Under the pieces are notes generated by a model. That model saw only the letters and a program-made list of their open reading frames with translations, did not search any database and was not told where the DNA came from. Positions 16,544 to 63,742 of a stretch of 64,000 bases of DNA are shown in pieces. The stretch comes from Xanthostigma xanthostigma (taxonomy: Eukaryota; Arthropoda; Insecta; Raphidioptera; Raphidiidae), in NCBI GenBank assembly GCA_963575645.1, contig OY754475.1:3782001-3846000 (forward strand), in the 5' to 3' direction. Both the position numbers and the translations under genes were made by a program. Position 1 is the first letter of the stretch, and each line of letters opens with the position of its first letter.

Positions 16544-16746
16544 TATATGAATTTGACTCTATTCAATAAATATAGAGCAATTGTGATCCATGAAGGTTAA
16601 TAAAGAAATTTTTGAAAAAATCCGTGGCGCACGCTTTTGAAATACTGAAGATGGTACCGAAACGTTAATAATAAATGCAATTGTTTAAAGCCAGTATTCT
16701 TTTCTTTGATCCTTGTATACGTCACGGATTTTTCCAAAAATGTCTC
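16544..16746 (+). mobile_element. Foldback retroposon with hammerhead-like core (family P, member A)
   Basis: A 203-bp insertion flanked by the exact 13-bp duplication TATTGATTTAAGT (16531-16543 and 16747-16759). Near its left edge is the head TTGACTCTATTCAATAAATA, then GTGATCCAT. The arm TTTTTGAAAAAATCCGTGGC is mirrored by GTCACGGATTTTTCCAAAAA at the far end. The core CTGAAGA (16645-16651), T, GGTACC, GAAAC (16659-16663) lies between. Head and arm are shared with 63075-63366. Here the hairpin loop is deleted, so this copy would be inactive. Confidence 0.7.
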
Positions 16747-17817: not shown

Positions 17818-17997
17818 GATATGATAAAACTATACGAGATACAAGACTAAAATATTAAAACAATTTTTTACTAAAGATTTTTAAGGTCCCGAAGAAGACA
17901 AGAAATATTGCCGAAACGTTGACCAATAAATAATGTTTTAGTGAATAAAAATTGTTTTTATATTTTAGCTTTGTAGCCCGTATAGTTTTATCATATC
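17818..17997. mobile_element. Foldback retroposon with hammerhead-like core (family P, member B)
   Basis: Arms GATATGATAAAACTATACG ... (17818-17875) and ... CGTATAGTTTTATCATATC (17938-17997) enclose the core. Core: GGTC (17885-17888), CCGAAGA (17889-17895), A, GACAA / TTGCC hairpin (17897-17901 / 17908-17912, one mismatch), GAAAC (17913-17917), GTT, GACC (17921-17924). GGTC and GACC pair, as helix I of a hammerhead would. CCGAAGA departs from the consensus CTGANGA at one essential position. Confidence 0.6.
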
Positions 17998-18569: not shown

Positions 18570-18690
18570 TAAATCGGTGTCACGTCTTGGTAATAACGCT
18601 GAGGAAGTCTAAAATATAGATGAAACGTCGATGATATGTATTTTAAAGAGACTACTCTTTATTTTCCCAGCGACAACTTTTCAAGAAAAA
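18570..18690 (+). mobile_element. Family P fragment with hammerhead-like core (member C)
   Basis: CTGAGGA (18599-18605), A, GTCTA / TAGAT hairpin (18607-18611 / 18617-18621), GAAAC (18622-18626), GTC. Followed by GAGACTACTCTTTATTTTCC, which resembles the head region of the family. Edges and target duplication are not clear. Confidence 0.45.
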
Positions 18691-33024: not shown

Positions 33025-34248
33025 CTAGTGCGCCGTCAATTGATGTCCCGCCATGGTCTGAGGACTCAGCATGGGTGGCGAGTGACTGTGACTTTGTCCA
33101 CCCATCGGACTACCGTGCATATCCGGATGATGATATCCTGGATGCATATGGGTCGGTGGTCCGGCGCCCATCCCGTCCATCATTTCACCGCCGAGCGTAT
33201 TCGGCGGCGTCATCCTCTTCTCTTTCTGTCTCCTGTTACAGAACCAGACCCTCACGACTTCCTTTTCCAATTGTAAACTATCGGCTAACGAAGTAATTTC
33301 CTGAGCGCTAGGTTTCGGCTGTTTATGGAAATGTTGTTCTAAAGCACCTTTGACACTAACTTCAATACTTGTACGTTTCTTTCTTTTTCTACCTTGTGCC
33401 GCTATTTTGTCTATTGACGTCGGCGATCCTGTCGTCGAATCGGCCTCCTCCAACCATTTTTGTAATAACGGTTTCAACTTACACATATTTTTGAAACTCA
33501 ACTGTAACGCTTCAAATCTACATATAGTCGTTTGTGAAAAAACATTACCATAAAGTGTTCCTAAAGCTAACCCTACATCGGCTTGCGTGAAACCTAATTT
33601 AATTCTTCTTTGTTTGAACTGTTTGGCGAACGCTTCAAGATCGTCGCTGGTCGGCGTATCTTCTTCGCCGCCGCTAATGTCCCGATCGCCAGGATGTTGT
33701 TGTTGGGCGGCGGCGTGATGCAGCGCGCCCGGCGAATGCATGTCCCGGAGCGCGTGATGCATCTGAGGCGCTCCGGTAGGCTGATGATGTCCGAGCATAC
33801 CGTTCATCGCCGCATGATAATGCTGGAGCGGACTCCCGGCACCACCGGGATTGTAATGTGCCGACGAGACGACGGGCGCGTGCCACTGTTGTTGTCTGTG
33901 ATGATGATGCATCGCCGATTCGGCTTGAGCCGCCGCCAAAGGCTTGACGTCCTGGTGATGGGCAGCGTGATGCATGCCCATCGACGCCGCCCAAGGATCG
34001 GCGGCGCTCGTCGTGCTCGCCTGCAGGCTAACCCAAGGATGCGAAACTGCAGGATGACCGCCGGGCGAAGGCGACGACGCCACCTGATGATGATGGTGGT
34101 GATGATGATGATGTTGGGCGGGTATGTACTTCATGTCGTTGGCATCGGCGGCCGATCTCGGGGATCCACCGCCCGCCGAATGGTACGCCCCGTGGCCGAT
34201 CATTCCGACATCGAGATCGCCGCCGCCGGCCGGCAGGTAGGCGGTCAT
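33025..34248 (-). CDS. vvl: Class III POU-homeodomain transcription factor (ventral veins lacking / drifter / POU-M1)
   Basis: An intact 407-residue reading frame in one exon, ending at TAG. Nuclear DNA-binding regulator; in insects this family controls tracheal, wing-vein, neural and (in silkworm) silk-gland gene expression. Residues 1-190 are a low-complexity activation region rich in His, Ala, Gly and Gln, with a nine-His run at 46-54 and the family motif SPRSAADA near 29-36. The POU-specific domain lies at about 195-269 ([20 protein letters not shown] start). A short linker follows, then the homeodomain at about 287-346, with basic RKRKKRTS and recognition helix [12 protein letters not shown]; Cys at homeodomain position 50 is typical of POU proteins. 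The tail ends in [12 protein letters not shown] and HQLTAH, as in fly vvl. The start is the first ATG after an in-frame stop at 34324-34326. GC content is far above the flanks. Intronless structure is normal for class III POU genes. Confidence 0.97.
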
Positions 34249-50477: not shown

Positions 50478-50835
50478 ATCTAAAAAATATAAAAATAATT
50501 AATATTTAAAATCTAATTCGCTTTTTATAGAATATTTCAAAATTATTTATAAATATCAAAATAATGAAAAAATAATAACAAACAATTTTTTATTAAGTAG
50601 TCATTATTTTGATATTCATAAATAATTTTGAAATATTCTATAACAAGCGAATTAGATTTTAAATATTAACTATTTTTATATTTTTTAGATCAATTCTGAA
50701 GAAGGTCCAAATCCGGATTGAAACGTTAATGTATTAATTTTATATTTTTGGTTAATATATTGTCTGAAAAATTGGTCGATAATTTTATTTATTGAAGAGT
50801 TCTAATCAGACATTAATCAAAGATTTAAAATAATG
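50478..50835. mobile_element. Foldback retroposon with hammerhead-like core (family P)
   Basis: Arms GATCTAAAAAATATAAAAAT ... TATCAAAATAATGAAAAA (50478-50575) and the inverse (50597-50692). Immediately after comes the core: CTGAAGA (50696-50702), A, GGTCC / GGATT hairpin (50704-50708 / 50715-50719; two G-U pairs), GAAAC (50720-50724), GTT. Helix I candidates ATT / AAT flank it. Then the family 3' end ATTGGTCGATAATTTTATTT and CAGACATTAATCAAAGATTT. Confidence 0.7.
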
Positions 50836-58224: not shown

Positions 58225-58345
58225 AAGCTGTATATTAACACTTCTTCATCTTGAAGAAGGCACAGTTAATGTCGAAACGTCGACCAATTTAGCATACTGT
58301 AACTGTTTTTGCATCCTCGCTCTCCGAAACTAAATAAATAAAGAT
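58225..58345 (+). mobile_element. Family P fragment with hammerhead-like core (member E)
   Basis: TTGAAGA (58251-58257), A, GGCAC ... AATGTC hairpin remnant, GAAAC (58274-58278), GTC, GACC; then CTCTCCGAAACTAAATAAAT resembling the family head. The first core base is T instead of C, and helix II is weak. Confidence 0.45.
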
Positions 58346-62127: not shown

Positions 62128-62656
62128 TAGTGATGTGCCGGATCGTTAAAAATGTATATCCGCGGATACGGATCTGAATACGGATTTTTGGTTTCAAGAT
62201 CCGCGGATACGAATACGGATCTTAACTTTCTTAGAGTACGCGGCGGTAAATATTGCACATCGACCTTTGGAAAGAGACTATCTGTTATGGGAAAAAGTTA
62301 TTGACCTCTTTAAGAGTTAACTCTCATAACAGATTGTCTCTTTCCAAAGATCGATGTGCAATATCTCATTATAAAGATAGTTGATTTAGTACCTTTGAGT
62401 TATGTACTATTAGTATGCTGTATGGTATACTCACTACGACAAATGTTTGCAATATAAAGGTGCCAAATACGATTTAAAAAAATAAAAAATAATCTGAATG
62501 GAATTTAACAGGTTTTCATTATTACCTAATCACCTATATATATTAAATTTCATCTATGAATTGACAATTAATAAGGGTAAAAGATCCGCCAAAAACTAAC
62601 GAATCTTTCTTCTCTCTATCGGATATCCGCGGATACGGATATCCGGCACATCACTA
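62128..62656 (-). mobile_element. hAT-type MITE (TAGTGATGTGCCGG ends), copy 2
   Basis: 529 bp, in opposite orientation to 24152-24684 and alike along its whole length, including the internal hairpin. Exact 8-bp duplication GTGCCAAC (62120-62127, 62657-62664). The two copies differ by scattered substitutions, so neither is very recent. Confidence 0.9.
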
Positions 62657-63074
62657 GTGCCAACATACAGAATGTGCATTTTAAACCAAGGCCTATAGGC
62701 CGCTGATACCGTGACTACGTTTTGAGAGCATCCATAGACATGGCAAACACATTTAACGTTTCGAAAAATGTCTATTTATTATACGACTCCTTTCGATTAC
62801 ACAGAAGAAAAGACAGACTGAAGATTATATCTATGATTTTTATAGGGCCTACCAAGGGACCCACTTCAAGCTTGAATGGTAACGATAACATATAAAAAGG
62901 CCTCATACCAAAAATCTGCCCCGGGATTTTTTGAGAGACATTGAAGATTTCATTCGTGATTTCCAGAGTCGTAACTCCAATGTGTCAACCTACAATAAGG
63001 GGCCCAATTCATGCATATAAAAGGGCCTCGTATCAAAGATCTGCCCCGGGATCTTGAGAGACATTGACTATTTT

Positions 63075-63366
63075 GATGAGTATTTGGAAAGAATTCCGTG
63101 GCATAAGGATCGAAAATGAAGCAATACTGAGATTTTTTTAAACTTGCATTTAATACTAACGTTTCGATACGTTTTGTATCATCTTCAGAGTGTTCTGTAA
63201 TTGATGATGATACAAAACGTATCGAAACGTTAGTATTAAATGCAAGTTTAAAAAAATCTCAGTATTGCTTCATTTTCGATCCTTATGCCACGGAATTCTT
63301 TCCAAATACTCATCATTAACTTCAATGGATCACAGTTTACTCTATTTATTGAATAGAGTCAATTTT
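63075..63366 (-). mobile_element. Foldback retroposon with hammerhead-like core (family P, member F)
   Basis: A 292-bp insertion into a tandem unit, flanked by the exact 13-bp duplication CATTGACTATTTT (63062-63074, 63367-63379). The neighbouring unit shows the empty site. Arms of about 115 bp (GATGAGTATTTGG, AAAGAATTCCGTGGCATAAG ... and inverse) enclose a short centre. Read on the minus strand, the element starts with the head TTGACTCTATTCAATAAATA and GTGATCCAT shared with 16544-16746. Confidence 0.75.
63152..63194 (-). ncRNA. Hammerhead-ribozyme-like motif (best copy)
   Basis: Minus strand, 5' to 3': helix I strand AACACT (63194-63189); CTGAAGA (63188-63182), matching CUGANGA; T; helix II GATAC, loop AAAAC, GTATC (63180-63166, five perfect pairs); GAAAC (63165-63161) then GTT; helix I strand AGTATT (63157-63152). 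AACACT and AGTATT pair at five of six positions. GAAACGTT holds the palindrome ACGT, so helix III would be two pairs with no loop and could form only between two molecules. Core bases agree with the hammerhead consensus except for one extra base before helix II. Activity is untested. Confidence 0.4.
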
Positions 63367-63563
63367 CATTGACTATTTTATTCGTGAATTCCAGGATCGT
63401 AACTATACGCTAGAGAAATCTACAAAAGGGCCCACTTCACCCACGAGTAGTAAGAATGACATTAAAGGGCCTCATGTCAAAGATCTGTCCTGTAGCCTCA
63501 CTCATTGTAAGTACGACGCAATTCTTTTTTTCAATTTTCGACAGAATAAAAATAATTATAATT

Positions 63564-63742
63564 TTGTGATACTATTTAAGATCCTTGATGATGTAAATAA
63601 TTTAACAAAAATCAGAGGAATAGGATCAGGAAATCAGTCAAAACTTCATGCTTACTCGCGACGCTTAATTAAAGCCGAAACGTCGCTAGTAAGCATGAAG
63701 TTTTGACTGATTTCCTGATCCTATTCCTGATTTTTATAAAAA
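63564..63742. mobile_element. Foldback retroposon (family P, member G)
   Basis: Arms AAAAATCAGAGGAATAGGAT CAGGAAATCAGTC ... CATGCTTAC (63606-63655) and inverse (63688-63736) enclose GCGACG, CTTAATTA, AAGCC, GAAAC, GTCGC. This is a GAAACGTC core with the CTGANGA part eroded. A 16-bp direct repeat AAAAATAATTATAATT flanks it (63548-63563, 63743-63758); it is AT-rich, so the duplication is less certain than for members A and F. Confidence 0.55.

What the first reader, a model, noticed from the sequence alone, without database searches (positions are those of the whole stretch)
63152..63194. Hammerhead-ribozyme-like core with palindromic helix III in a foldback retroposon
On the minus strand CTGAAGA, a 5-bp hairpin and GAAACGTT are arranged as a hammerhead core, with a helix I candidate of 5 of 6 pairs. 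The helix III strand is the self-complementary ACGU, so only a dimer could be active. Hammerhead motifs with very short helix III are known from Penelope-like retroelements and some short interspersed repeats. Assignment to such a family here is my inference.
Basis: partly seen in the sequence, partly recalled or inferred. Interest (0 to 1): 0.8.

Follow-up and report, generated by a model that had tools for sequence, protein, structure and literature searches.

The report
Hammerhead motif in foldback Penelope retroposon
A short sequence shaped like a self-cutting RNA sits in a young, high-copy mobile element of the Penelope retrotransposon type, and the mirror-image layout of its copies suggests that such elements insert by copying their RNA from both strands of the cut target DNA.

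Summary
The motif is real. The minus strand of 63194-63152 reads helix I, CTGAAGA, one U, a 5-bp hairpin, GAAACGUU, helix I. Rfam reports no hammerhead, but a covariance model of eight other families of this genome, with no window row, finds it at E 2.6e-6; helices I and II covary across 12 families. The host is a short non-autonomous Penelope-like element, "F1" (1504 core matches with at most one mismatch, control 0). The window copy is a foldback insertion, 63075-63369, with a 13-bp target duplication. One arm stops at internal site 1; the other runs about 53 nt further, to site 2. Of 35 foldbacks scored on part of contig 1, 32 have one arm of each kind. These ends resemble the two reverse-transcription start sites of an anole Penelope enzyme that cuts and extends both strands in vitro (PMC11167929). 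Best reading: two cDNAs primed on opposite target strands, one from each site, then joined. In 70 of 75 arms the copy runs past the predicted cleavage point, so templates were mostly uncut. Ribozyme activity is untested; dimer energies do not favour it. PLE hammerheads are a known kind.

The parts
63062..63074 (.). left target-site duplication CATTGACTATTTT
63075..63202 (-). untailed arm of the F1 insertion: ends at site 1 (63075) and reaches into the 3' end of the intron (63195-63202)
63152..63194 (-). hammerhead-type core: helix I 63194-63189 / 63157-63152, CTGAAGA 63188-63182, extra U 63181, helix II 63180-63176 / 63170-63166, GAAACGTT 63165-63158; predicted cleavage after 63158
63203..63205 (.). 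3-nt filler GAT at the arm junction; junction found once in the genome
63206..63369 (+). tailed arm of F1: partial core (no CTGAA), body, site 1 after 63315, tail to site 2
63316..63369 (+). tail between site 1 and site 2; its last 1-3 bases overlap the duplication
63367..63379 (.). right target-site duplication CATTGACTATTTT

Best explanation
The site is one insertion of a short non-autonomous Penelope-like element (F1, about 390 nt, with an optional 75-nt intron). Its RNA carries a minimal PLE-type hammerhead core just upstream of two adjacent reverse-transcription start sites. A PLE reverse transcriptase / GIY-YIG endonuclease supplied in trans cut both target strands some 12 bp apart and primed one cDNA from each 3' end, one at site 2 (tailed arm) and one at site 1 (untailed arm). 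Both stopped mostly in or near the core region and were joined end to end, often with 2 nt of microhomology. This gives a head-to-head inverted repeat with a target duplication. Shown by sequence: the element, the covarying core, duplications, arm asymmetry, varied junctions, spliced and intron-bearing copies, copies running past the cleavage point. Inferred: initiation on both strands in vivo, the enzyme in trans, joining by host repair, any ribozyme activity.
For: Core: covariation 40 double-change cells against 15.8 shuffled, 0 of 500; window-free model E 2.6e-6. Insertion: duplication in 33 of 34 two-armed copies, 1.4% for mismatched flanks. Asymmetry: 32 of 35 pairs mixed, and by eye 6 of 6, 2 of 2 and 1 of 1 readable pairs of F2, F3 and F4. 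PLE: RVT_1 and GIY-YIG in L042; 122 related RT places, of whose neighbours within 10 kb 20 are head-to-head, 9 tandem, 0 tail-to-tail. Sense spliced template: 20 of 41 loci spliced, 6 with the intron end. Precedent: a PLE protein cuts and extends both strands and starts at two adjacent internal sites (PMC11167929, parts 1-3 of 4 read).
Against: The anole paper saw no difference in start site between strands, so the one-site-per-strand rule is not predicted by it. 3 of 35 pairs are not mixed (1 tailed/tailed with a third end nearby, 2 untailed/untailed that I could not read). In the 20 loci read from C1, 2 have an arm ending elsewhere, 1 has a partial tail and 1 is a simple untailed insert. One junction with 31 copies shows that not every foldback arose anew. 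No F1-specific autonomous partner was identified. Set A (L009-L028) was chosen with a query that includes part of the tail.
Confidence: 0.72

Rival explanations
1. Self-priming: one cDNA, or an antisense RNA copy, folds back at a palindrome and copies itself, making the inverted arm, as proposed in 2013 for rotifer Penelope elements.
For: Palindromic sequence at and near the junctions, e.g. L059 and L068; PMC3846280 (passages seen).
Against: A fold-back copy of the tailed cDNA cannot reach further than the cDNA itself, yet the untailed arm is the longer in 20 of 29 copies (8 shorter, 1 equal); a copy of the untailed cDNA could not carry the tail. Spliced copies (20 of 41) point to a sense template.
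Confidence: 0.12
2. The foldback is itself the mobile unit: RNA of an existing foldback is copied and inserted whole.
For: One junction has 31 matches with up to 1 mismatch; L060 and L069 share that junction and a variant found in one arm only.
Against: The window junction is unique; another has 7 matches; most junctions of the copies read differ. Hence it may hold for a minority.
Confidence: 0.13
3. The core is a relic without catalytic function in F1; the families keep it for another reason, such as the start codon, protein binding or palindromes used in joining.
For: Weak F1 dimer: -4.1 against -10.8 kcal/mol for two monomers and -19.9 for the best cofold; in none of the five families modelled is the hammerhead dimer below two monomers (which does not model core contacts). 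Copies run past the cleavage point in 70 of 75 arms. The anole hammerhead was dispensable for insertion in vitro (PMC11167929).
Against: The CTGANGA and GAAACGT core is kept together with covarying helices I and II across families.
Confidence: 0.35
4. It is a retrozyme: RNAs cut at both ends by the hammerhead, circularised, then reverse-transcribed.
For: Short non-autonomous element with a type I core; such elements are described in PMC7229834 and PMC7761336 (passages seen).
Against: Templates were not cut at the core in 70 of 75 arms; copies have an intron and start sites downstream of the cleavage point; no tandem F1 copies among the 100 ends listed, one same-strand neighbour apart.
Confidence: 0.04
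5. A foldback DNA transposon or MITE with terminal inverted repeats.
For: Inverted repeat with a target duplication.
Against: Outer ends differ by the tail in 32 of 35 pairs; 5'-truncated simple copies L031 and L032; precise intron loss.
Confidence: 0.01

Closest known systems
PAc / Poseidon PLE of Anolis carolinensis, hammerhead and two RT start sites (PMC11167929, parts 1-3 of 4 read)
   Same: CUGANGA, one extra U that makes the AUG, helix II, GAAACGU; two adjacent start sites downstream of the core with a tail between; both target strands cut and extended
   Different: PAc is autonomous, with H17 = C; F1 has H17 = U, no long frame from the AUG (a stop after eight codons), an intron, and a tail of about 53 nt; strand-specific use of the sites was not seen for PAc
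Penelope elements of Adineta vaga (PMC3846280, passages seen)
   Same: inverted pLTR next to the element, target duplication, tail on one of the inverted pLTRs, palindromes at inverted junctions, introns
   Different: few copies there, and self-priming on an antisense template was preferred; hammerhead is not mentioned in that text (0 occurrences)
Small PLE hammerhead variants that cleave as dimers (Lunse et al. 2017) and PLE hammerheads (Cervera and de la Pena 2014): titles seen in reference lists only, texts not seen
   Same: minimal type I core lacking a proper helix III, by the reviews PMC6155905 and PMC7761336 (passages seen)
   Different: could not compare sequences
Metazoan non-LTR retrozymes (PMC7229834, passages seen)
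   Same: short non-autonomous elements with a type I hammerhead
   Different: tandem repeats with canonical hammerheads spreading through circular RNA; F1 is dispersed, mostly foldback, and copied past the cleavage point

Membership tests
Hammerhead ribozyme, minimal PLE type | CUGANGA and GAAA core with helices I and II | tested here: met
Hammerhead ribozyme, minimal PLE type | Rfam hammerhead model match at the curated score | tested here: not met
   a short or absent helix III may explain it (inference)
Hammerhead ribozyme, minimal PLE type | stable helix III, or dimer through ACGU | tested here: inconclusive
   ACGU is palindromic; dimer energy not favourable
Hammerhead ribozyme, minimal PLE type | self-cleavage | not testable with these tools
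   needs a bench assay
Penelope-like element | RT plus GIY-YIG protein | tested here: not met
   F1 has no such frame (copies of about 390 nt); sister family F3 has both domains in L042. F1 is therefore filed as a non-autonomous relative
Penelope-like element | inverted pLTR-like arms, optional tail, target duplication | tested here: met
Penelope-like element | sequence kinship of F1 to a named autonomous PLE in this genome | not tested
Retrozyme | tandem units bounded by hammerheads, circular RNA intermediate | tested here: not met
   dispersed copies; arms run past the cleavage point; circular RNA itself not testable here
Foldback DNA transposon | equal terminal inverted repeats | tested here: not met
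   32 of 35 pairs have unequal ends

The most novel reading that the evidence does not exclude
Penelope elements insert by paired target-primed reverse transcription: a two-enzyme complex cuts both strands and makes two first-strand cDNAs, each target strand using a different one of the two adjacent RNA start sites, and the two antisense cDNAs are then joined. The 'tail' would mark which strand used which site, and the inverted pLTR of PLEs would be a normal product of integration.
Probability: 0.5. Interest if true: 0.78.

Novelty: new member of a known kind. Interest (0 to 1): 0.55.

Why it matters
How Penelope elements integrate is still open: the in vitro paper reports both-strand extension and two start sites and leaves the later steps to be validated. 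A young family with hundreds of copies, clear ends and clear duplications gives a footprint of those steps: one start site per strand, variants shared by the two arms, microhomology at the joint, and templates not cut at the element's own ribozyme core. It also bears on what the PLE hammerhead is for, since cleavage would separate the start sites from the body of the RNA.

Tried and rejected
Rfam alone gave no hammerhead, so a model was built from the genome's own families. R1 contains the window row and two other window rows and cannot test them; R2 was built from 8 of the 12 rows, leaving out the window rows F1, F10, F11 and also F6, whose family has a window copy. R3, sequence only, gives the window core 17.0 bits against 36.2 with structure; the two model types are not strictly comparable. 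Rows F7 and F12 fit the structure poorly and were kept. A first tail count with an exact 30-mer gave 27 of 35 mixed pairs, 7 untailed/untailed, 1 tailed/tailed; reading L073 showed a tail with one mismatch, and a second tail probe raised it to 32, 2 and 1. That probe was run with up to 3 mismatches, but the 100 places listed are all exact. The further 11 untailed ends with an opposite tailed partner were looked for by that partner and so cannot show an equal pair; I keep them apart. The 17 foldbacks of set A, all mixed, come from a query that includes part of the tail and are not in the 35. For microhomology, 24 of 34 two-armed copies passed the script; 5 with long unmatched spans were dropped and repeated junctions merged, leaving 16. 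For arm lengths, 5 of 34 with an end inside the intron were left out. Of the 10 variants shared between arms, 3 come from the L054/L060/L069 junction group, so unit multiplication or subfamilies can explain part. The species is unknown; 'arthropod' rests on a POU-homeodomain gene whose likeness to insect vvl / POU-M1 is recalled.

Full report
What is there. The anole PLE RNA printed in PMC11167929 reads CUGAGGA-U-GCC...GGC-GAAACGUC and its frame starts at the same place (parts 1-3 of 4 read).

Is it a hammerhead structure? Rfam reports none. The pattern CTGANGA-N10-14-GAAACGTT has 264 matches in the 623-Mb genome against 4 for the reversed pattern. Twelve families found in the DNA I held were aligned without use of structure. 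Helices I and II then show 74.6% of cells paired against 45.4% shuffled, 40 cells with changes on both sides against 15.8 (0 of 500 shuffles as high), covariation 0.682 against 0.216, and at most 13 such cells when partners are slid; two weaker measures, pairs with a double change and further pair types, are reached by 38 and 88 of 500 shuffles. A model of eight families with no window row finds the window core at E 2.6e-6, five other cores (17881, 16637, 58243, 18591, 50688) at E 0.001 or better, and the partial core of the other arm at 0.0044; E-values are rough. So the structure is kept across families; whether F1 still cuts is open. In none of five families modelled is the hammerhead dimer lower in energy than two monomers or the best cofold: F1 -4.1 against -10.8 and -19.9, F5 -15.9 against -18.8 and -21.0, F8 -17.7 against -18.4 and -20.4, F9 -11.3 against -18.4 and -28.6, F2 -7.3 against -8.2 and -13.3 kcal/mol (core contacts are not modelled).

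The element. A search with the right arm gave 63 matches from 40 scored of 952 candidates, 60 of them at 97-100% identity. A 23-nt core probe has 1504 matches with at most one mismatch, control 0. The simple copy L029 spans 389 nt of element between duplications. A 75-nt GTAAGT...TTACAG intron is present in some copies and precisely absent in others: of 41 loci, 20 show the spliced junction, 6 the intron end, 15 neither, 0 both. The window's left arm ends inside the intron, so its template was unspliced.

The foldback. The window insertion is flanked by CATTGACTATTTT. Of 34 two-armed copies, 33 have a duplication (L055 has none); flanks paired with the wrong partner reach the same score in 1.4%. 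One arm ends at ...TACTCATCA (site 1), the other runs about 53 nt further to ...CAATCTTCAT (site 2). For a count not tied to the tail I took the first 100 of 1094 site-1 places, all on contig 1, and two tail probes (482 and 1463 matches, 100 listed each): 35 pairs, 32 mixed, 1 tailed/tailed with a third end 225 bp on, 2 untailed/untailed that I could not read; of 30 unpaired ends, 11 untailed ones have an opposite tailed partner, 7 untailed and 12 tailed ones have none seen. No convergent neighbours within 2 kb. Of the 20 C1 loci read (20 of the 71 clusters that I counted in the list), 16 are mixed, 1 has a partial tail (L055), 2 have an arm ending elsewhere (L064, L068), 1 is a simple untailed insert (L072). 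Simple tailed copies also occur: L029, L030, L031, L032. Families F2, F3 and F4 show mixed ends in 6 of 6, 2 of 2 and 1 of 1 pairs that I could read by eye; L036, L048 and L051 were not classifiable, the other loci show one arm.

How it was made. PMC11167929 reports that a purified anole PLE protein cuts and extends both target strands, that reverse transcription starts at two adjacent internal sites, and that the sequence between them is the genomic tail; it saw no difference in start site between strands. PMC3846280 (passages) describes the inverted pLTR, the tail on one of the inverted pLTRs, and prefers self-priming on an antisense template. The copies here fit two separate initiations better. 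Both outer ends abut the duplication. The untailed arm reaches further in 20 of 29 copies (8 less far, 1 equal), further than a fold-back copy of the tailed cDNA could. Spliced copies call for a sense template. The two arms of a copy share variants beyond permutation (10 shared, 0 of 2000). Nine of 16 distinct junctions overlap by 2 nt or more (P 2e-4). Some foldbacks multiply as units: one junction has 31 matches and L060 and L069 share a variant in one arm only; another has 7; the window's is unique. Among relatives of the L042 reverse transcriptase, 122 places include 20 head-to-head, 9 tandem and 0 tail-to-tail neighbours within 10 kb (122 of 647 candidates scored).

What the ribozyme did not do to these templates. 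Cleavage after 63158 would leave the start sites on a short 3' piece. Of 75 arms measured, 70 begin upstream of that point, one of them by only 2 nt, and 5 downstream. Loci were chosen for carrying the core, so the fraction is inflated; still, those templates were uncut there. 63 of the 75 inner ends lie at reference positions 181-251, in and just upstream of the core, which may reflect RNA structure, palindromes used in joining, or both (inference).

What is not shown: cleavage, expression, which enzyme moves F1, the species. My paper searches (listings, with passages of the papers named) showed no statement of the one-site-per-strand rule; the library lacks most subscription papers, and not every listed paper was opened.

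Noticed in passing
window 16637-16674, 17881-17928, 18591-18637, 50688-50735, 58243-58289 (+): Five further hammerhead-type cores of other families, e.g. GGTC...GACC helix I at 17881; found by models R1 and R2.
   Followed up: partly
window 63616-63728: A second near-perfect palindrome (51-nt arms, 96%) with GCCGAAACGTCGC near its centre but no CTGANGA; weak model match only (E 1.3). Possibly another PLE foldback with its core lost.
   Followed up: no
window 62250-62364: Inverted repeat with 43-nt arms, 93% complementary, 29 nt between.
   Followed up: no
window 62889-63490: Three diverged copies of an AGGGCCTCGTATCAAAGATCTGCCC-type repeat at 62892, 63017 and 63461; the F1 insertion lies between the second and third.
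   Followed up: no
window 33025-34248 (-): POU-homeodomain gene (Pou 1.5e-38, Homeodomain 5.9e-20).
   Followed up: partly
L064 about 1353 and L068 about 1368: Two copies have an arm whose outer end lies at the same internal place...CATTTTCGATC: perhaps a rare third start site.
   Followed up: no
G000 C7:24097847-24111164: Five PLE reverse-transcriptase copies in tandem at an exact 3097-bp spacing, each with an 823-aa open frame.
   Followed up: no
L004 286-358: A tRNA-like match just above the gathering score (29.9 against 29 bits), about 1.1 kb from an F4-type core.
   Followed up: no
L042 2702-4217 (-): F3 copy with RT and GIY-YIG in overlapping separate frames between inverted core-bearing ends 5.4 kb apart.
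   Followed up: partly
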